A program made the position numbers and the translations under genes. From contig NZ_CH902584.1 in assembly GCF_000152845.1 (NCBI RefSeq), positions 2,369,680 to 2,433,679 on the forward strand: DNA of 64,000 nt, read 5' to 3'. The stretch comes from Roseovarius sp. 217. GTDB lineage: Bacteria; Pseudomonadota; Alphaproteobacteria; Rhodobacterales; Rhodobacteraceae. Within the stretch, counting starts at the first letter, position 1. The number at the start of each line of letters is the position of its first letter. The notes beneath the pieces were generated by a model that worked only from the letters and a program-made list of their open reading frames with translations, had not been told where the DNA came from and did no database searches. Positions 7,235 to 59,874 of this stretch are shown piece after piece.

Positions 7235-7546
7235 GCCAGCGCATTGGGAAGCAAACGAGCACATTTGAGTTTGCAGCCCAACGTGTCCACCAGCCGAGAC
7301 CGGTGCGCACGATCTGTGCGAAGTTTCATCGATTGCAACCTGTGCTGCACCGAGTTGGCGTTCAACGACCTCAAGATCGCTCTCCACTCTCGCTGTCCAA
7401 ATTGAAGCTGACGGAAGGGATCTATGCACCCCTTGTTGATTGTCACTGAGAACTGACCCGGCAACAGCAGAAATTGTCATTGAGAATTGACCCATGTGCA
7501 ACCTTGCCCCGGCTTGAATCAGCTGGGGGCGCATGGAGTGATAGAC

Positions 7547-9075
7547 ATGGGATTTTTGAAAGTTATTCGGCGATGGGCGCTGCGAGAGAAGATGCCCATT
7601 CGCGAGATCGCGCGGCGGACTGGCGTGTCTCGCAACACGATCAAGAAGTATTTGCGGGAGGGGATTGTTGAACCTGCGTTTCAGGTGCCAGATCGCCCCA
7701 GCAAGTTGGACCCTTTTGCCAAGCATCTGACAGCATGGCTGACGACTGATCAGCGCAAATCACGCAAGGAACGCCGAACGGCGAAGCTGATGCACGCCGA
7801 TCTTGTGAAGCTTGGATATGACGGTTCTTACGAGCGTGTTGCGGCCTTCGTGCGGGACTGGAAGGGTGAACGGCAGCGTGCGCATCACACGACGGATCGC
7901 GGGACTTTCGTGCCACTGGTGTTCGCGCCGGGTGAGGCTTTCCAGTTCGATTGGAGCGAGGACTGGGCCTATATCGGCGGTGAGCGCATCAAGCTGCAGG
8001 TTGCCCACATCAAGCTGTCACATAGCCGCGCGTTTCTGGTGCGGGCCTATCTGCTGCAAACACATGAGATGCTGTTTGATGCCCACTGGCATGCATTCCG
8101 CGTCTTCGAAGGCGTCCCTGGGCGCGGCATCTATGATAACATGAAGACAGCCGTCGACCGGGTTGGCGTCGGCAAACAGCGCGATGTGAATGCGCGGTTC
8201 CTGGCCATGACCAGCCACTACGTCTTCGATCCCGAGTTCTGCAATCCGGCGGCTGGTTGGGAGAAGGGTCAGGTTGAGAAGAGCGTGCGTGATGCCCGAC
8301 ATCGCCTCTGGCAGGTCGCTCCTGTCTTCCCAGACCTTGCTGCACTGAATGAATGGCTGGAAGACCGTTGCAAGCTGCTGTGGGCGGAGACGGCACATGG
8401 CGCACTGCCTGGCAGCATTGCTGATGTTTGGGGGGTCGAGAAGTCTGCCCTGATGCCCCTGCCCACGATGTTTGATGGCTTTGTCGAAGAGAGAAAGCGC
8501 GTATCGCCCACCTGCCTGATCACTTTCGATCGCAACCGCTATTCCGTGCCCGCCAGCTTTGCGAACCGGCCGGTGAGCCTGCGCATCTACCCCGAACGTC
8601 TGGTCGTTGTCGCCGAGGGGCATGTGATCTGCACGCATGAGCGGATCATTGAACGATCCCATCGTCAGCCAAGGCGCGTCATCTATGACTGGCGCCATTA
8701 TCTGGCGGTCGTTCAGCGCAAACCCGGGGCGCTGCGCAATGGCGCGCCCTTCGTCGAAATGCCCGAACCCTTCCGCTTGCTGCAGGCGAAGATGCTACGA
8801 CAGCCCGGCGGAGATCGAGAGATGGTCGATATCTTGTCACTGGTCTTGCATCACGATGAACAGGCGGTGCTCTGCGCAGTGGAATTGGCGTTAGAGGCCG
8901 GCGTGCCGACCAAAACCCATGTGCTGATCTGCTCCACAGGCTGCTGGATGGCAAGCTGACTGACCAGCCAGACGTGAACCCTCCAGCCGCCTTGTCGCTG
9001 AGCCAGGAGCCCGAGGCCAACGTCGCGCGCTATGATGGGTTGCGCGCCCAGAAAGGAGTGCGCGATGCGTCATGA
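7547..9075 (+). pseudogene. istA: istA transposase of IS21, frameshifted
   Basis: The DDE transposase of IS21. It has an N-terminal helix-turn-helix (IREIARRTGVSRNTIKKYL) and an integrase-core domain with FQFDWSED, GIYDNMKTAVDRV and the EKGQVEKSVRDARHRLW region. The reading frame stops at 8959. Near 8925-8930 one base appears to be missing: the next frame continues directly with LLHRLLDGKLTDQPDVNPP and runs to a TGA at 9073-9075, overlapping istB as in intact IS21. I therefore call a single-base deletion removing the last ~38 residues. The start at 7547 (MGFLKVIRRW) has a GGAGTG ribosome site. A sequencing error is possible. Confidence 0.85.
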
Positions 9076-9856
9076 TCCCGCAGGTGCTGCCATCGTCATC
9101 ATGTTGCGCAGCCTGAAGATGCCAGGCATGGCGCAGGCTGTGCAGGATTTGCATGAGCAAGGATCGCCCGCATTTGAAGCCGCCATGCCGATCCTGTCGC
9201 AACTGCTCAAAGCGGAAATGGCCGAACGCGAGGTGCGCTCTATCGCCTATCACATGAAGGCGGCGCGCTTTCCGGCCTATAAAGACCTCTCTGGCTTCGA
9301 CTTTGCCGCCAGCGAGATCCGTGAAGCCTTGGTCCGTCAACTTCATCGTTGTGAGTTTATGGACGCGGCTGAGAATGTGGTGCTGATCGGAGGTCCGGGG
9401 ACAGGGAAATCACACGTTGCAACGGCTCTCGGCATTCAGGCCATCGAGCATCATCGTAAACGCGTGCGCTTCTTCTCAACCGTCGAACTGGTCAACGCGC
9501 TGGAGCAGGAAAAGGCTCACGGCAAGGCCGGGAAGATCGCCGAGGCGCTGGTCAAGACCGACTTGGTGATCCTGGACGAGCTGGGATATCTGCCGTTCAG
9601 CGCCTCTGGTGGCGCGCTGCTCTTCCATCTTCTGAGCAAACTCTATGAACGCACCAGCGTCATCATCACCACCAACCTGAGCTTCAGTGAATGGGCCAGC
9701 GTCTTTGGCGATGCCAAAATGACCACAGCGCTACTCGATCGTCTCACTCATCGCTGCCACATCCTCGAGACCGGCAATGACAGCTACCGCTTCAAGGCCA
9801 GCTCCGAAACGGCAAAGAAAAAGCGAAAGGAGGCAACAGCATTGACGCCATCATAA
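9065..9856 (+). CDS. istB: IstB, IS21 ATP-binding helper of transposition
   Basis: A 263-residue AAA+ ATPase that assists IstA in target selection and strand transfer. It has the N-terminal IstB helical region, Walker [10 protein letters not shown], Walker [11 protein letters not shown], and the sensor region [12 protein letters not shown] followed by [11 protein letters not shown]. The start at 9065 is preceded by AAAGGAG at 9051-9057 and lies inside the conceptual end of istA, so the two would be translationally coupled if istA were intact. The gene itself looks undamaged and of normal length. Confidence 0.93.
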
Positions 9857-35152: not shown

Positions 35153-35168
35153 GGTAATGGCCTGCTGC

Positions 35169-35376
35169 TGACCTTGGCCCCAAGCGATGAGCCGCGCGGT
35201 CGCTGGGCCGGGGACTGGCGATGCAACGGCGGCAACTGCCACTTAATGCAAGCAAAGTCCGTATGACGTCAAAGAGATGCACTCCGTCTCAAAATCGCTA
35301 GGCCGCGGGACGGCCCAGCGATCGCGCGGCGCCCTTCGGGCTTGATTCCGCGCGTAAGCGCTTGGGGCCAACGTCA
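35169..35376 (+). repeat. dispersed structured intergenic element, copy A
   Basis: A 208-bp element in the tail-to-tail gap between the AEC and enolase-family genes. Ends: TGAC-n-TTGGCCCCAAGCG (35169-35186) and CGCTTGGGGCCAA-n-GTCA (35359-35376). Inner stem: 35192-35209 pairs with 35312-35329 with one wobble. Small hairpin: GCCC-TTC-GGGC at 35331-35341. The sequence outside the right end, up to about 35395, is also shared with copies B and C. The rest of the gap 35153-35397 shows nothing else. Confidence 0.8.
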
Positions 35377-35397
35377 TCTCTAGACCAAAACCTGCCC

Positions 35398-36630
35398 TCA
35401 CTCATCCTCAGGCGGCGCACCCCCGACAAAGCTGTTACCATTGACGTAATCACAAGGCGCTTCCTGCATCTCCAAATGCAATCCGGTGCCACGATAGGGA
35501 TTTGCCCGCGCCAGATCCTCATCCACCTCGATACCCAAACCGGGGTTTTCCGGCGGGGTGATGAACCCGCCCTCGACCCGGATGCTCCCCTTGATCAGCG
35601 CGTCATGAAACGGTGTCTCGATGCATTCGCACATCAAGAGATTGGGGATGGAAGCGGCAAAACTCACATTGGCGGCCCATTCCACCGGCCCGGCATAGAG
35701 ATGCGGTGCCATTTGCGCATTGTAGACCTCGGCCATCGCGGCGACCTTTTTCATCTCCCAGATGCCGCCCGCGCGGCCCAGCGCCGGTTGCAGGATCGCG
35801 GCCGCCCCATCGCGCAGGATGGGGGCAAACTCTGCCTTGGTGGTCAGCCGCTCGCCAGTGGCCACGGGGATACGCACAGCGCGCGCCACCTGTGCCATCG
35901 CAGCGACATTGTCTGGCGGCACCGGCTCTTCGTACCAGAGCGGTGAATAGGGCTCGAGCGCCTGACCCAAACGGATTGCGCCCGCGGTGGTGAACTGCCC
36001 ATGCGTGCCAAAGAGCAGGTCCGCCTTGTTGCCGACGGCGGCGCGGATCGCCCGGCAAAATTCCACCGAGAGCGAAATATCCGTCATTGCGGGCATATGG
36101 CCACCGCGCAGGGTGTAGGGGCCAGCGGGATCAAACTTGATCGCCGTGTACCCACGCGCGACGCAGTCTTTGGCGCTTTCGGCGGCCATGTCGGGCGAGG
36201 TCCAAAATTCTGCAACGGGGTGAAGGGGCAGGGGGTAGAGATAGGTGTAGGCGCGGATGCGGGGGTTCATCTTGCCCCCCAAGAGCGCCCAGACGGGGCG
36301 TCCGCGCGCCTTGCCCAGGATGTCCCAACAGGCGATTTCCAGCCCCGAGAACGCACCGATGGTGGTGGGGTCCGGACGCTGCGTAAAGCCGGAAGAATAG
36401 ACGCGGCGGAACATGAGTTCGATATTCTCAGGGTTTTCCCCGGCCATGTGGCGGGCGAACACATCCTCGACTACCGCGCGCATGGCCTCGGGCCCGACGC
36501 TGGCAGCATAGCATTCCCCCCATCCCGTGAGGCCGGTATCGGTGGTTACTTTGACCAGTATCCAGTAGCGCCCGCCCCAGCCGGGTGCTGGGGGCGCGGT
36601 CACGATGATGTCAAGGTCTCTGAGCTTCAT
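35398..36630 (-). CDS. mandelate racemase/muconate-lactonizing (enolase) family enzyme
   Basis: A 410-residue enolase-superfamily enzyme. The N-terminal capping domain is at about 1-125. In the TIM barrel, acid-base and metal residues appear in AIKFDPAG, LLFGTHGQF, WYEEPVPPDN and VATGERLTTKAEF, with HLYAGPVEWAAN at the end of the barrel. Such enzymes dehydrate or cycloisomerise sugar acids. I cannot assign the substrate. The start is the ATG at 36630 after AGGATG. It precedes no other gene closely, but the next minus-strand genes up to 40114 also look catabolic. Confidence 0.88.
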   Translation of the reverse strand: MKLRDLDIIVTAPPAPGWGGRYWILVKVTTDTGLTGWGECYAASVGPEAMRAVVEDVFARHMAGENPENIELMFRRVYSSGFTQRPDPTTIGAFSGLEIACWDILGKARGRPVWALLGGKMNPRIRAYTYLYPLPLHPVAEFWTSPDMAAESAKDCVARGYTAIKFDPAGPYTLRGGHMPAMTDISLSVEFCRAIRAAVGNKADLLFGTHGQFTTAGAIRLGQALEPYSPLWYEEPVPPDNVAAMAQVARAVRIPVATGERLTTKAEFAPILRDGAAAILQPALGRAGGIWEMKKVAAMAEVYNAQMAPHLYAGPVEWAANVSFAASIPNLLMCECIETPFHDALIKGSIRVEGGFITPPENPGLGIEVDEDLARANPYRGTGLHLEMQEAPCDYVNGNSFVGGAPPEDE

Positions 36631-36813
36631 GGGTGCATCCTGTAAGGTGTCAAGAGCGTGGGTTTGCAAGGTCGGACCGGGGGCCAGCCCCTCGGTCCCC
36701 GCGGTATTTGAGGCCAGATGACTGGCAGACTGTCGCATTCGATGAGAGGGCGGCGGGCGTTGATCCTTGGTGCAGGTGACCCGGATTCGCGCGCCACCGC
36801 AAGCGGGTTTCAG

Positions 36814-37614
36814 TCAGGCGGGGTCGATATGCCCGGTGGCCTGCAGGAACGTGGTCAGCAGACGCGCATAGTCGCCCGGTTGGTCCACCGGCGGCACATG
36901 CCCGGTGCGGCGCATCAGCTCGAACCGTGAGCCGGGGATCAGGTCCACGGTTTCACGCACGAGGTCGGGCGGGGTCGAGCCATCCTCGGCCCCGGCAATG
37001 CCCAGCGTGGGCAGGCGCAGGCCAGAGGTGGGCGTGTAGAAATCTGTGCCCGATATAGCGGCGGCGCAGCCGGCATAGCCTTCGGGGTCATGCTGGCATA
37101 GGCGCTCGAACCAAGGCAGATGCTTATTCTCCTTGAGATAGGCGCGCGTGAACCAGCGCTCGCATGATCCGCGTGCGAGGTCCGCCATACCGCCCGGATT
37201 ACGCGCCGTGGCGATGCGCTCGGCCCAGAGCTTGGGCGTGCCGATCTTGGCCCCGGTATTGGACAGCACCATCGCGCGGATCAGGTCGGGGCGTTTCACC
37301 GCCAGCCCCTGCGCCACCATCCCGCCGATGGAAAGGCCCACGAACATGGCGTCATTGATGCCCAGATGATCCATCAGCCGCTCGGCATCGCGGATCAGTG
37401 CGCCCATCGTATAGGGGGCAGGCGGGCAGGAGGATTGCCCATGCCCGCGCGCATCATAGCGGATGATCCGCAGGCCGGGCGGCAAGAGCGGCACCACCGC
37501 ATCCCAGAGAAACGTGCCGGTGCCCAGCGCATGGGCAAAGACGATGGGCGCGCCCTCGGGGTCGCCCTCGTCGAGGTAATGCAGGGTCACATCATCCAGA
37601 TCGAGAAAGGCCAT
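36814..37614 (-). CDS. alpha/beta hydrolase, PcaD-like
   Basis: A 266-residue alpha/beta-hydrolase resembling 3-oxoadipate enol-lactonase. The nucleophile is S95 in VGLSIGG. The acid lies in the GAEDGSTPP loop, and the catalytic histidine is in RTGHVPP. YDARGHGQSS is the oxyanion-region motif. It is the last gene of a four-gene minus-strand unit (HAD, hydrolase, dehydratase, hydrolase) with gaps of 9 bp or overlaps. Without other protocatechuate genes nearby, pcaD function is not proved. Confidence 0.82.
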   Translation of the reverse strand: MAFLDLDDVTLHYLDEGDPEGAPIVFAHALGTGTFLWDAVVPLLPPGLRIIRYDARGHGQSSCPPAPYTMGALIRDAERLMDHLGINDAMFVGLSIGGMVAQGLAVKRPDLIRAMVLSNTGAKIGTPKLWAERIATARNPGGMADLARGSCERWFTRAYLKENKHLPWFERLCQHDPEGYAGCAAAISGTDFYTPTSGLRLPTLGIAGAEDGSTPPDLVRETVDLIPGSRFELMRRTGHVPPVDQPGDYARLLTTFLQATGHIDPA

Positions 37615-37623
37615 GATCCCCTC

Positions 37624-38598
37624 TCAGGCAAAGCGCGCAAGCGCGTCTTGGAACACATCCGCATCGACATTGCCGCCCGAAATGGTGAGAAACACCGCGT
37701 CGCCCGCGATCTGATCGGCACGAAAGAGGGCGGCGGCCAGCGCCACGGCACCCCCCGGTTCCGCCACCAGCTTGAGCCGGGAAAAGGCCAGCGCCATGGC
37801 GTGCAGCGCCTCATCTTCGGTCACGACCAGCCCCGGACCGCAGAGCCGCCGCATGATCGGAAAGGTGAGGTTCCCCGGCTGCGGTGTGACGATGGCATCG
37901 CAGAGACTGCCCGAGGTCCGGGCGTTGCGTTCGATCTGCCCCGATGCCAGCGATCGGGCGGCGTCGTCGAACCCCTCCGGCTCACAGGGCCGTGCGCGCA
38001 GGCCCGGCGCGTCCGCCTCAAGCGCCAGAGCGATGCCCGAGGTCAGACCGCCCCCGCCGCAACAGACCAGCACATCGGCGCGGGTGATGCCCATGGCCGC
38101 TGCATCCTCGGCAATCTCAAGCCCGATGGTGCCTTGGCCTGCGATCACCTGTGGCTCGTCATAGGGCTTGATCAGCGTCAGACCGCGCTCAGCACTCAGC
38201 GCCGCCCCGATGGCATCGCGATCCTCGGTTGCGCGCTCATAGAGCACCACTTCGGCCCCCAGCGCACGGGTGTTGTCGATCTTCATGCGCGGCGCGTCCG
38301 ACGGCATGATGATCACGCTTGGCACACCAAATTGCCGCGCCGCGAGCGCCACGCCCTGCGCATGGTTACCAGAGGAAAAGGCGATCACGCCCCGTGCGCG
38401 GGTCGCTGCATCCAGCGCCGAAACAGCCGAGCGCGCCCCGCGATACTTGAAGCTGCCGGTATGTTGCAGGCACTCGGGTTTGACAAAGACGCGCCGTCCG
38501 GCGATCTCGTCGAGAAAGGGCGAAGACAAGAGCGGCGTGCGCCTTGCATGGCCAGCAAGGCGGCTGGCGGCGGCGCGGATCATCGTAATGTCGGTCAT
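37624..38598 (-). CDS. threonine/serine dehydratase-like PLP enzyme
   Basis: A 324-residue fold-type II PLP enzyme. The Schiff-base lysine is K51 in TGSFKYRGA; the phosphate-binding loop is CCGGGGLTSG; SSGNHAQGVALAA matches the substrate loop. It lacks the C-terminal regulatory domain of IlvA, so it resembles catabolic threonine or 3-hydroxyaspartate dehydratases. It starts 4 bp inside the preceding hydrolase gene (ATGA) and is followed after 9 bp by the PcaD-like gene. It probably releases ammonia from a hydroxy amino acid. Confidence 0.88.
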   Translation of the reverse strand: MTDITMIRAAASRLAGHARRTPLLSSPFLDEIAGRRVFVKPECLQHTGSFKYRGARSAVSALDAATRARGVIAFSSGNHAQGVALAARQFGVPSVIIMPSDAPRMKIDNTRALGAEVVLYERATEDRDAIGAALSAERGLTLIKPYDEPQVIAGQGTIGLEIAEDAAAMGITRADVLVCCGGGGLTSGIALALEADAPGLRARPCEPEGFDDAARSLASGQIERNARTSGSLCDAIVTPQPGNLTFPIMRRLCGPGLVVTEDEALHAMALAFSRLKLVAEPGGAVALAAALFRADQIAGDAVFLTISGGNVDADVFQDALARFA

Positions 38599-39428
38599 TT
38601 CATCTGGTCCAAGAGGGCGCGAATGGCGCCGAGGGATTGCGGTTCATCGAGAAAGGGCACATGGCCTCGGTCGGGCACGGTGGCGGTGATGAGGTCCGGG
38701 TGACGCTCTTGCATTTTCGCAAAGGTCTCAAGGCTTAAAAGATCGGAATTCGCCCCCCGGATCGCGGCGGTGGGAATATCCCGCAGCGCATCGAACAATT
38801 GCCAGAGGTCCACCGCCTCGCCAGCCCCCGCTTGGCCCACCAGCGCATCACGGAGCCGTGCGTCATAGCGCAGGCCAAGACCGCCCCCCGGTTTTTCATA
38901 GAACATGAAGCCCGCCTGTTGACGCCAGCGTTCCAGTGGCACGCCGGGAAAACCTTTGGCATGGACATGGGCGAGAGCGGCGGCGCAACTGTCCAGATCG
39001 GGTTGCGCCGGCTCGCGCCCCACGTAATCCATGATCCGCTCGATCCCGATGGGCGCCACCTCTGGCCCGATGTCATTGAGCACGACACCGCGCAGGCGTG
39101 CGGGATGCCCATAGGCCAGCGCCATGGCAATCAGCCCGCCGCGCGAGGTGCCGATCAGCGTGACACGCTCCAGCCCCAGATGATCCATCAATTCAATAGC
39201 GTCCTGCCCTTCGCGCAGGATGTTGTAGGACATGAAATCGGGCGCATACTCGGATTGCCCGCGCCCGCGATAATCCATGCAGATCAAACGATTGCCTGCG
39301 AGATGCGGCGCGACAAAGCTGAAATCGGCGCTGTTGCGCGTGAGCCCCGCAAGGCAGAGGATCGGCGCGCCGGTCCCCTCATCGGTATAATAAAGCGAGA
39401 CGCCGTCAGAGGTGGTAAACCGCCCCAT
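38595..39428 (-). CDS. alpha/beta hydrolase
   Basis: A 277-residue alpha/beta-hydrolase. The nucleophile is S95 in IGTSRGG; MDYRGRGQSEY carries the structural motif; the catalytic histidine is in DRGHVPFLDEP. The start at 39428 overlaps the stop of the HAD gene by one base (TGATG), and its end overlaps the dehydratase by 4 bp, so the four genes form one transcript. Substrate unknown; ester, lactone or C-C bond cleavage are all possible. Confidence 0.85.
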   Translation of the reverse strand: MGRFTTSDGVSLYYTDEGTGAPILCLAGLTRNSADFSFVAPHLAGNRLICMDYRGRGQSEYAPDFMSYNILREGQDAIELMDHLGLERVTLIGTSRGGLIAMALAYGHPARLRGVVLNDIGPEVAPIGIERIMDYVGREPAQPDLDSCAAALAHVHAKGFPGVPLERWRQQAGFMFYEKPGGGLGLRYDARLRDALVGQAGAGEAVDLWQLFDALRDIPTAAIRGANSDLLSLETFAKMQERHPDLITATVPDRGHVPFLDEPQSLGAIRALLDQMK

Positions 39429-40114
39429 CAGCCGCGCGCCAGATCGGGAATGCCGGTCAGGTCGCGCAACTGGTGGCGCGGCGTGGCGGGCAGGCGGTCC
39501 ACCGGATCGCCCGCGCGGTTGACCCATGCGGTCGCGAACCCATAGCCCGCGGCGGCACAGGCATCCCAGCCATTCGAAGACACGAAGAGCACCTCGTCGG
39601 GCGCGCAGCCAAACCGCTGCCCCACCAGATCATAGACCACGCGCGCGGGTTTGAAGATGCCCACGCTCTCGACCGAGAGCACATCGTCGAGCACATCGCC
39701 AATCCCGGCGGATTTTACCGCCCCCTGCAACATATCCGGCGCGCCGTTCGAGAGGATGGCGGTGTTCATCCCCGCCGCTTTCAGCGCGCCCAGCATGGCG
39801 GGCACTTCTGCATAGGCTTCCAACTCCCAATAGAGCTGCAAGAGCCGGTCGCGCAGCGCGGTATCGCCGTGCAATCCCTCCGATTCCAGCGCCCAATCGA
39901 GCCCGTCCTGAGTGACCTGCCAGAACCCTGTGTGTTGCCCCATGACCGCACGCAGCCAAGTGTACTGCAACTGCTTCAGCCGCCATTTTTCGGCAATTGC
40001 GGGCCAGTGTTTGGCAAATCGCTCGCGCCCCGGCTCGGTTGCGGCATTGCGCGCGGCGGCTGCCACATCAAACAGCGTGCCATAGGCATCAAAAATGCAG
40101 GTGGTGATCGGCAT
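39428..40114 (-). CDS. haloacid dehalogenase type II (HAD superfamily)
   Basis: A 228-residue HAD hydrolase of the L-2-haloacid dehalogenase kind. The nucleophile is D9 (CIFDAYGTLFD). ILSNGAPDML supplies the Ser/Asn of motif II, IFKPARVVYDL the motif III lysine, and FVSSNGWDACAA the motif IV aspartate. YTWLRAVMG matches the family's substrate-pocket helix. It is the first gene of the four-gene catabolic operon. Dehalogenation of 2-haloacids is the family reaction; the natural substrate may differ. Confidence 0.87.
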   Translation of the reverse strand: MPITTCIFDAYGTLFDVAAAARNAATEPGRERFAKHWPAIAEKWRLKQLQYTWLRAVMGQHTGFWQVTQDGLDWALESEGLHGDTALRDRLLQLYWELEAYAEVPAMLGALKAAGMNTAILSNGAPDMLQGAVKSAGIGDVLDDVLSVESVGIFKPARVVYDLVGQRFGCAPDEVLFVSSNGWDACAAAGYGFATAWVNRAGDPVDRLPATPRHQLRDLTGIPDLARG

Positions 40115-40339
40115 GGTCTCGTATCCCCCTTGGTGATCGCGCGCAGACTGTCATGGAACGGCAGGGGCGAAAAGACCCCACGCGCGCACGAGGCTGTGAG
40201 GGACCGGGCCGCAATTTCAGGAGTCGGTTTGCAAATCGGGACCGGCGTCGCTAAATTAGAGGGCAGTCGCACCAAGCACCCGCGCAGATCTTGCGTGGCC
40301 TTGCAAACTCATCCCCCTTCCAAACAGATTGGAGATCCA

Positions 40340-40768
40340 ATGACGCAGGTCAAACCGGGCGATACTGTCCGCATTCACTACACCGGCACGCTGGCCGATG
40401 GCGCAACGTTTGATTCGAGCGCCGGACGTGATCCGCTCGAATTCACCGTAGGCTCTGGCCAGATCATTCCCGGCCTTGATGCCGCGATTACCGGCATGAC
40501 TGTGGGCGACAAGAAAACCGTCGAAGTGCCCGCCGACATGGCCTATGGCCAGCCCGATCCAAGCGCCCAACAGGCGGTGCCGCGCGCCGAGATTCCAGCG
40601 GATATCCCGCTCGATTTGGGCACTCAGTTGCAGATGCAGACACCGCAGGGTCAGGTGTTGCCGGTGACTGTGGTCGACGTGACAGATCAAGAGGTCGTGC
40701 TTGATGCCAACCACCCCCTGGCAGGCAAGGATTTGACCTTTGCCATCGAACTGGTCGAAATCGCCTGA
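40340..40768 (+). CDS. FKBP-type peptidyl-prolyl isomerase (SlyD-like)
   Basis: A 142-residue cis-trans prolyl isomerase and chaperone. It has the FKBP core (VRIHYTGTLADGATFDSSAGRDPLEFTVGSGQIIPGLDAAITGM in family terms) and the inserted-flap region (PADMAYGQPDPSAQQAVP...LGTQLQ), ending NHPLAGKDLTFAIELVEI. These are signatures of the SlyD/FkpB group. The His-rich metal-binding tail of E. coli SlyD is absent. The ATG at 40340 follows GGAGATCCA. It is monocistronic and ends next to repeat B. Confidence 0.92.
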   Translation: MTQVKPGDTVRIHYTGTLADGATFDSSAGRDPLEFTVGSGQIIPGLDAAITGMTVGDKKTVEVPADMAYGQPDPSAQQAVPRAEIPADIPLDLGTQLQMQTPQGQVLPVTVVDVTDQEVVLDANHPLAGKDLTFAIELVEIA

Positions 40769-40831
40769 GTGCGAATGCGCTGTGCCCAGCGCGTGCGGTT
40801 CAGAAAGAGTGCGGGGGTGTTGGTCTGTTGC

Positions 40832-41084
40832 TGACATTGGTCCCAATTGATGAGCCGCGCGGTCGCTGGGCCGGGGACTAGCGATGCAACGGCGGCAACT
40901 GCCACTTAATGCAAGCAAAGTCCGTATGACTTTAAAGAGATGCACTCCATCTCAAAATCGCTAGGCCGTCACGCCGAAGGCGTGCCGAGAAAAAGCGGCG
41001 CATCTTCGGTGCGACGGACGGCCCAGCGATCGCGCGGCGCCCTTCGGGCTTGGTTCCGCGCGTAAGCGCTTGGGACCAAAGTCC
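40832..41084 (+). repeat. dispersed structured intergenic element, copy B
   Basis: A 253-bp element in the tail-to-tail gap between the FKBP and quinone-reductase genes. Ends: TGAC-n-TTGGTCCCAA (40832-40846) and TTGGGACCAA-n-GTCC (41070-41084). The T/A pair replaces the C/G pair of copy A. Inner stem: 40855-40872 with 41020-41037. Hairpin: GCCC-TTC-GGGC at 41039-41049. Compared with A it carries an extra ~45 bp that itself contains a hairpin-like sequence (near 40968-41015). The rest of the gap 40769-41109 is featureless. Confidence 0.8.
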
Positions 41085-41109
41085 GCTTCAGGCCAAACCC
41101 GGCCCCGTC

Positions 41110-59592: not shown

Positions 59593-59632
59593 AATCGGGT
59601 GACGAAGCGGGGGGCGGGAATTGGCCTGAAGG

Positions 59633-59842
59633 GGACGTTGGCCCCAAGAGCTTACGCGCGGAATCAAGGCGCGAAGCGCCGCCGCGCAGCGCCCGTCCGC
59701 CCCACCGGGCGGGCGCTTCTGCAACGTTGCAGTCTCTTGAAATCGCGGGAGTGTTTGGCAGATATAAAGTGCCAGCCGACCAAGTCGCAGCGCCCACCCG
59801 GCAGACGGGCACCGCGCGTCTCATCAGTTGGGACCAATGTCA
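59633..59842 (-). repeat. dispersed structured intergenic element, copy C
   Basis: A 210-bp element, reversed relative to A and B, in the tail-to-tail gap between the VOC and thioesterase genes. Plus-strand ends: GGAC-n-TTGGCCCCAA (59633-59647) and TTGGGACCAA-n-GTCA (59828-59842), giving one wobble in the terminal helix. Inner stem: 59683-59697 with 59804-59818, with two wobbles; its sequence differs from A and B but pairing is kept. Hairpin: GGCGC-GAA-GCGCC at 59668-59680. The central ~100 bp is unrelated to A and B. Confidence 0.78.
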
Positions 59843-59874
59843 GCAACACGCCACGCGCGCACTCTCCCCAATCC

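What the first reader, a model, noticed from the sequence alone, without database searches (positions are those of the whole stretch)
35169..41084. Family of structured intergenic elements with paired sequence changes, copies A and B (third copy C at 59633-59842)
Three elements of 208, 253 and 210 bp share terminal inverted repeats TGACnTTGGYCCCAA / TTGGGRCCAAnGTCM and an inner nested stem. Across copies the arms change together: C/G in A (TTGGCCCC/GGGGCCAA) becomes T/A in B (TTGGTCCC/GGGACCAA). The GCCC-TTC-GGGC hairpin of A and B becomes GGCGC/GCGCC in C. The inner stem sequence of C (59683-59697 with 59804-59818) differs from that of A and B but still pairs. Such changes are the mark of a selected structure, RNA or cruciform DNA. 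The centre is shared by A and B but not C, so a variable cargo lies inside a fixed frame. I do not recognise it as a known RNA or MITE family.
Basis: partly seen in the sequence, partly recalled or inferred. Interest (0 to 1): 0.78.

Follow-up and report, generated by a model that had tools for sequence, protein, structure and literature searches.

The report
Foldback repeats between marine-bacterium genes
The three elements belong to a large, apparently undescribed family of about 168-base repeats, dozens of copies in this genome and present in many related bacteria, that fold back on themselves and keep that fold even where their letters have changed, so the fold itself is being preserved.

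Summary
A, B and C are copies of one family: a sharply bounded core of about 168 nt with a 32-pair interrupted stem (P1, P2), a part-conserved apical segment (GC.CTTTAT..C.GCCA) and a 3' hairpin that competes for the foot of the stem. The window's genome holds about 64 copies; 129 of 196 genomes sampled from the order (65 of 87 genera) have it; in a class sample it was seen only in the same family. Covariation is strong (score 0.324; shuffled 0.111; slid at most 0.054). Wobble pairs are strand-asymmetric (G-T 110, A-C 21), so one strand is the folded, selected form. Copies sit mostly between convergent genes (45 of 62), without preferred orientation. Seven copies downstream of pheS in three genera keep the core 72-88% identical beside flanks mostly near random. 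No Rfam family matches the cores; eight literature searches found no description. Best reading: a dispersed structured-repeat family, REPIN/MITE-like in behaviour, without RAYT association, GT[AG]G foot or U-tract; function untested.

The parts
35189..35354 (+). copy A, core: P1 (foot and lower stem), P2, apical domain, 3' hairpin
   Evidence: R1 full-length match, 149.6 bits, E 1.1e-28; fold -84.5 kcal/mol, z -3.94
35159..35183 (+). copy A, left outer repeat GGCCTGCTGCTGACCTTGGCCCCAA
   Evidence: sequence
35362..35386 (-). copy A, right outer repeat (inverted)
   Evidence: sequence
40852..41062 (+). copy B, core, with an insert in the internal loop between P1 and P2
   Evidence: R1 full-length match, 108.1 bits, E 2.1e-20
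40969..41017 (+). copy B, extra pair of hairpins; a similar insert is in eight other G000 copies of A type
   Evidence: alignment of 57 full-length cores
40822..40846 (+). copy B, left outer repeat
   Evidence: sequence
41070..41094 (-). copy B, right outer repeat (inverted)
   Evidence: sequence
59655..59822 (-). copy C, core, inverted relative to A and B, with other stem sequences (C subtype)
   Evidence: R1 full-length match on the minus strand, 122.2 bits, E 3.3e-23; fold z -3.08 for 59651-59822
59623..59647 (+). copy C, outer repeat at its low-coordinate end
   Evidence: sequence
59828..59852 (-). copy C, outer repeat at its high-coordinate end (inverted)
   Evidence: sequence

Best explanation
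A, B and C are copies of a family of dispersed, non-coding, structured repeats of Rhodobacterales. The unit is a core of about 168 nt whose one strand folds into a long interrupted hairpin with a partly conserved apical segment and a competing 3' hairpin. It spread by an unidentified transposition-like process that recognises the folded single strand (ssDNA or RNA) of the A-orientation strand, in the way REP/REPIN or IS200/IS605 end hairpins are recognised; copies survived mainly at gene 3' ends, above all between convergent genes, and at least some are now held in place by selection. Shown: the family, its fold, the strand asymmetry, the location bias, the orientation neutrality, presence and absence of copies at the same site in different species, conservation of some resident copies. 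Inferred: the mode of spread, the recognising protein, ssDNA versus RNA, and any benefit to the host.
For: About 64 copies in the genome, all found on contig C4; hits in 129 of 196 order genomes and 65 of 87 genera. Covariation: 18 of 32 pairs with double changes, score 0.324 against 0.111 shuffled. Strand asymmetry on an alignment made without structure: G-T 110, A-C 21; 19 pairs against 5, sign test 0.0066. Site A: in five relatives whose flanking genes are 13-86 bp apart the element is absent; site B: absent in the five relatives read, two of which have another gene there (no R1 match in these stretches at E up to 0.1). Tandem same-orientation clusters in nine loci. No orientation preference in co-directional gaps: 20 same, 18 opposite; 6 and 9 in G000. 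At most 0.28 bits at any of 40 upstream positions over 115 copies, so no shared upstream promoter seen.
Against: No mobilising protein found: Y1_Tnp (PF01797) hits in 6 of 22 same-genus genomes including the window's own, none in ten copy-carrying ones (copies). No target-site duplication was recognised (by eye only) and no clean empty site could be read, because intergenic DNA is too diverged. Seven copies downstream of pheS in three genera keep the core 72-88% identical although flanks are mostly near random; a purely selfish, immobile copy should have decayed. Against strict retention, too: two of seven genomes of the main genus there lack it. Recent activity is not shown: the copy nearest to A is 93% identical.
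Confidence: 0.45

Rival explanations
1. A host-useful structured RNA class: copies yield an A-strand RNA in which the 3' hairpin and the foot of the long stem are mutually exclusive; copies spread but are kept for a regulatory or RNA-processing role.
For: Selected fold with G-T wobble on one strand; column 151 of A2 covaries with both column 14 and column 189, as competing pairings would; conserved resident copies downstream of pheS, six of the seven in genomes with one to three R1 hits.
Against: No shared upstream promoter seen and no promoter-like site at A, B or C; of 10 pheS-linked copies 9 are antisense to pheS and one is sense; no orientation bias relative to neighbours; no expression data.
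Confidence: 0.3
2. A two-way gene-end element: a transcription terminator, 3'-end protector or supercoil-relief (gyrase-type) site between convergent genes, as E. coli REP/BIME sequences are held to be (recalled).
For: 45 of 62 placed copies in G000 between convergent genes against 4 of 77 other gaps sampled; 47 of 92 against 32 of 237 in other genomes, and 7 of 92 divergent against 69 of 237.
Against: Two-way use predicts no strand asymmetry of wobble pairs, which is strong; no terminator-like hairpin with a U-tract at A, B or C; a plain terminator needs no conserved apical sequence. The bias could simply be where insertions do least harm, and the G000 background is biased low for convergent gaps.
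Confidence: 0.2
3. Chance palindromes or an alignment artefact.
For: GC-rich DNA makes strong chance stems; shuffles of these cores already fold at -67 to -77 kcal/mol on average.
Against: About 64 homologous copies in one genome, and covariation absent from every slid control.
Confidence: 0.02

Closest known systems
REP / REPIN sequences with RAYT (TnpA-REP)
   Same: Dispersed intergenic palindromes in inverted pairs, many copies per genome; a folded single strand is thought to be recognised (passages of PMC6006769). Long vertical persistence of REPINs is recalled.
   Different: Core of about 168 nt with a part-conserved apical segment and a third hairpin; foot reads (A/G)AGCC, not GT[AG]G; Y1-type genes were not found in many copy-carrying genomes.
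Bacterial MITEs / small mobile sequences (PMC2229807, listing and start of abstract only)
   Same: Small, non-coding, multi-copy, intergenic; some copies carry a 25-nt inverted terminal repeat.
   Different: Repeat at both ends in 24 of 64 copies; no target duplication recognised; no transposase with these ends found in a limited search; inner structure conserved across an order.
HRC-8-4 motif of Rhodobacterales (PMC8632094, section 22 read)
   Same: Structured intergenic motif reported only from Rhodobacterales.

Membership tests
REPIN/RAYT | RAYT (Y1 transposase, PF01797) present in genomes that carry the repeat | tested here: not met
   Hits in 6 of 22 same-genus genomes incl. own; none in G003, G006, G007, G008, G012, G014, G015, G016, G018, G019, all with element hits. 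In G000 the strong hit is on C1, where no copy was found; the weak one (C4:3017747) has no listed copy within 25 kb.
REPIN/RAYT | GTAG or GTGG tetranucleotide 5' of the hairpin foot | tested here: not met
   5' foot reads (A/G)AGCC over 115 copies; classes with other feet are mentioned in PMC6006769, so this alone is not decisive
REPIN/RAYT | two palindromes in inverted orientation around a spacer | tested here: met
   5' and 3' sides are each palindromic and pair with each other
MITE | terminal inverted repeats | tested here: inconclusive
   both arms in 24 of 64 own copies, allowing 9 mismatches of 25; in other genomes only some loci, by eye
MITE | target-site duplication | tested here: inconclusive
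   none recognised by eye in some own and other copies; no clean empty site
MITE | autonomous relative with the same ends | tested here: inconclusive
   end-repeat pattern in G000, G023, G024: 24 of 29 G000 hits lie at known copies, the other 5 and the 6 in G023 were not followed up
Rfam family | match at or near the gathering score | tested here: not met
   whole window at gathering; A and B, five other loci and C with E up to 5: over C only matches far below gathering (best h2cR, 24.5 bits against 70)
intrinsic terminator | GC hairpin followed by a U-tract | tested here: not met
   no terminator-like site overlaps A or B or C

The most novel reading that the evidence does not exclude
A new order-wide class of structured single-stranded element, with two mutually exclusive pairings of one arm, that is maintained by selection at resident sites and is recognised in folded form by an unknown host factor, unrelated to RAYT/REPIN or any listed RNA family.
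Probability: 0.35. Interest if true: 0.8.

Novelty: new variant of a known kind. Interest (0 to 1): 0.62.

Why it matters
Rhodobacterales are abundant and much studied marine bacteria, yet a repeat family found in about two thirds of the sampled genomes of the order matches no Rfam family and was not found in the papers searched. Its strand-asymmetric, covarying fold makes the old question of what REP-like repeats do (mobility, transcript ends, DNA topology, RNA) testable in organisms with many and with few copies, with resident orthologous copies as natural controls. It also gives a working search model for many unexplained intergenic stretches.

Tried and rejected
Outer arms as the selected stem: rejected as the main signal. 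RAYT/REPIN membership: two features not met. Rfam: nothing near gathering over a core. Plasmids and phages: with A as BLAST query 3 of 72,556 plasmid and 0 of 50,697 phage records; A finds only near subtypes, so these are lower bounds. Viral contigs: of 11 with the 3'-hairpin pattern only L254 has a strong R1 match; seven others give short matches of 20-23 bits and three none. Upstream promoter: none shared. Empty sites: the A and B sites read in relatives lack the element but intergenic DNA is too diverged to show a junction; longer gaps at these sites in G004, G012 and G030 were not read; the C site is not contiguous in the relatives searched. Orientation relative to the fork over the whole contig: 27 with, 37 against, by my tally of the positions and assuming a terminus opposite dnaA.

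Rows dropped: 7 fragments or deleted forms of 64 before the 57-core alignment; 16 of 57 with inserts or close relatives before A1; 35 of 137 before the other-genome set, among them chance hits in Acetobacteraceae, Ktedonobacterales and Dokdonella (R1 24, 25 bits and none), most viral hits, deleted forms and some true copies with inserts; A2 holds 63 chosen for diversity and length (54 of the 81 diversity-filtered others, plus 9 own). One search placed 92 of 100 matches; one search placed 62 of 64. Loci were found with a pattern that fixes most of the 3' hairpin stem, so that stem is not an independent test there (column 189 of A2 lies outside the pattern). L111 is the edge of the L007 copy, so 64 loci are 63 copies plus a fragment near 2861407.

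Papers: PMC12306157, PMC6006769 and PMC5107571 passages; PMC8632094 section 22 and passages; the rest search listings or starts of abstracts. That the family is not in print is claimed only for those eight searches of an open-licence library.
Full report
What is there. The three elements are copies of one family. A model (R1, 168 positions, 32 pairs) built from 63 diverse copies (A and C are among them) matches all three end to end: A core 35189-35354 (+), B core 40852-41062 (+), C core 59655-59822 (-). B has two extra hairpins in the internal loop. All three lie between convergent genes, named by Pfam: A between a membrane transport protein and an enolase-superfamily enzyme, B between an FKBP and a zinc-binding dehydrogenase, C between a glyoxalase-superfamily protein and a thioesterase-superfamily protein.

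Copies in the genome. The window lies in G000, contig C4. Searches with A and C gave 52 and 46 matched pieces, which I resolved to 64 loci (one, L111, is the edge of another copy, leaving 63 copies and a fragment). All were on C4, 4.11 of 4.77 Mb. Fifty-seven full-length cores fall into stem subtypes that replace both arms together: A type (CGCTGGGCCG with CGGCCCAGCG), a rarer type in L028, L100 and L104 (CCAGACCG with CGGTCTGG), and C type (GCCCGTCCGCC with GGCGGACGGGC). Forms without the centre also occur (L024, L029, L105, L112, L118).

Distribution. By DNA similarity 31 of 60 genomes (own included) had hits: 31 of 36 in the same genus, 0 of 24 outside it. Hits in Acetobacteraceae, Ktedonobacterales and Dokdonella (L158, L196, L201) have only weak or no R1 match and were dropped.

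The fold is selected. On A2, aligned without knowledge of structure, 93.4% of cells pair, 18 of 32 pairs have changes on both sides, and the covariation score is 0.324, against 0.111 (sd 0.006) for shuffles and at most 0.054 for slid partners. On 119 copies, in an alignment fitted to the model, the figures are 92.5%, 21 of 32 and 0.288. On that same fitted alignment mutual information puts two P1 pairs first; among the strongest couplings are P1 and P2 pairs (formed in 83-99% of copies), the local pairings of each palindromic side (56-97%; three of the strongest only 62-72%) and columns linked through these. The outermost P2 pair is poorly supported (38 CG, 18 of 63 not paired). One arm position (A2 column 151) covaries with both its P1 partner and its 3'-hairpin partner, as competing pairings would. 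A resident example shows double changes in place: L295 against its neighbours downstream of pheS.

One strand is the selected form. In A2, P1 has 62 G-T and 7 A-C cells and P2 48 and 14; by pair, 19 against 5 (sign test 0.0066; cells are not independent, nor are related sequences). In the 119-copy set the counts are 178 and 51, by pair 19 and 7 (this alignment favours wobble pairs). A cruciform used on both strands, or two-way terminator use, would not predict this.

Where it sits. In G000 45 of 62 placed copies lie between convergent genes, 15 in co-directional and 2 in divergent gaps, against 4 convergent of 77 other gaps in the same sampled DNA; that background is biased low because neighbours of convergent gaps are not convergent, and the simple gene caller misplaces at least copy B. 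In other genomes 47 of 92 against 32 of 237. In co-directional gaps orientation is even, 20 and 18, 6 and 9 in G000.

Resident copies. In 30 genomes chosen from those with hits, R1 finds a strong full-length copy near pheS in 10, all downstream of it, 9 antisense and 1 in sense; a weak match lies upstream in one more. A pheT-type gene was confirmed by Pfam as the next synthetase gene in two loci only. Seven of the 10 come from three genera that share flanking genes: five of seven genomes of genus g46, one of two of g92, and the one of g79; the others lack it there. For these seven the core is 72-88% identical in all 21 pairs, while 3' flanks are 23-37% and 5' flanks 7-66% identical. Six of the seven genomes show only one to three R1 hits. 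This is the strongest sign of purifying selection at fixed sites, though conversion between copies is not excluded.

Ends. Over 115 copies from other genomes information is at most 0.28 bits at any of 40 positions before the core, with a short G-rich preference after its 3' end (up to 0.65 bits). The outer repeats (consensus near GGCCTGAAGGGGACATTGGCCCCAA, with a TGTTGCTGAC variant) are at both ends of 24 of 64 own copies, counting up to 9 mismatches of 25, and covary weakly.

Mobility. At site A five relatives whose flanking genes are 13-86 bp apart lack the element; at site B the five relatives read lack it, two of them carrying another gene there (no R1 match in these stretches). This shows gain or loss between species, not the mechanism. 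PF01797 transposases were not found in ten same-genus genomes that carry copies.

What it most likely is. A dispersed structured-repeat family that behaves like REPINs or MITEs but fails two REPIN features tested and shows MITE ends only in part. I prefer recognition of a folded single strand, because that explains strand asymmetry, indifference to neighbouring gene direction and the lack of a shared promoter together; the resident conserved copies suggest that some are useful to the host. The choice between ssDNA and RNA is not settled by sequence. No Rfam family comes near its gathering score over the cores tested, and eight literature searches gave no description of it; one Rhodobacterales motif in print, HRC-8-4, differs in site and architecture as described.

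Noticed in passing
window 7487-9856: IS21-type insertion sequence (transposase with Mu-type C-terminal domain, and IstB); seven DnaA-domain hits of identical score in G000, one of them this IstB, suggest about seven copies.
   Followed up: partly
G000:C4 around dnaA (1.375 Mb): From 0 to 2.12 Mb, on both sides of dnaA, 20 of 23 copies point against the assumed replication fork; elsewhere there is no such bias. Post hoc (positions).
   Followed up: partly
L138, L217, L187, L177, L199, L181, L200, L178, L160: Two or three copies in tandem, same orientation, in one intergenic region; L183 has a pair in opposite orientations.
   Followed up: no
L024, L029, L105, L112, L118, L154, L157: Short forms that have lost the centre, as deletion between the direct repeats formed by the 5' P1 arm and the 3' P2 arm would give (by eye).
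   Followed up: no
L170, L177, L194, L195, L217, L246: Different extra hairpins inserted on the 3' side of the stem in different genomes, reminiscent of the insert of copy B (by eye).
   Followed up: no
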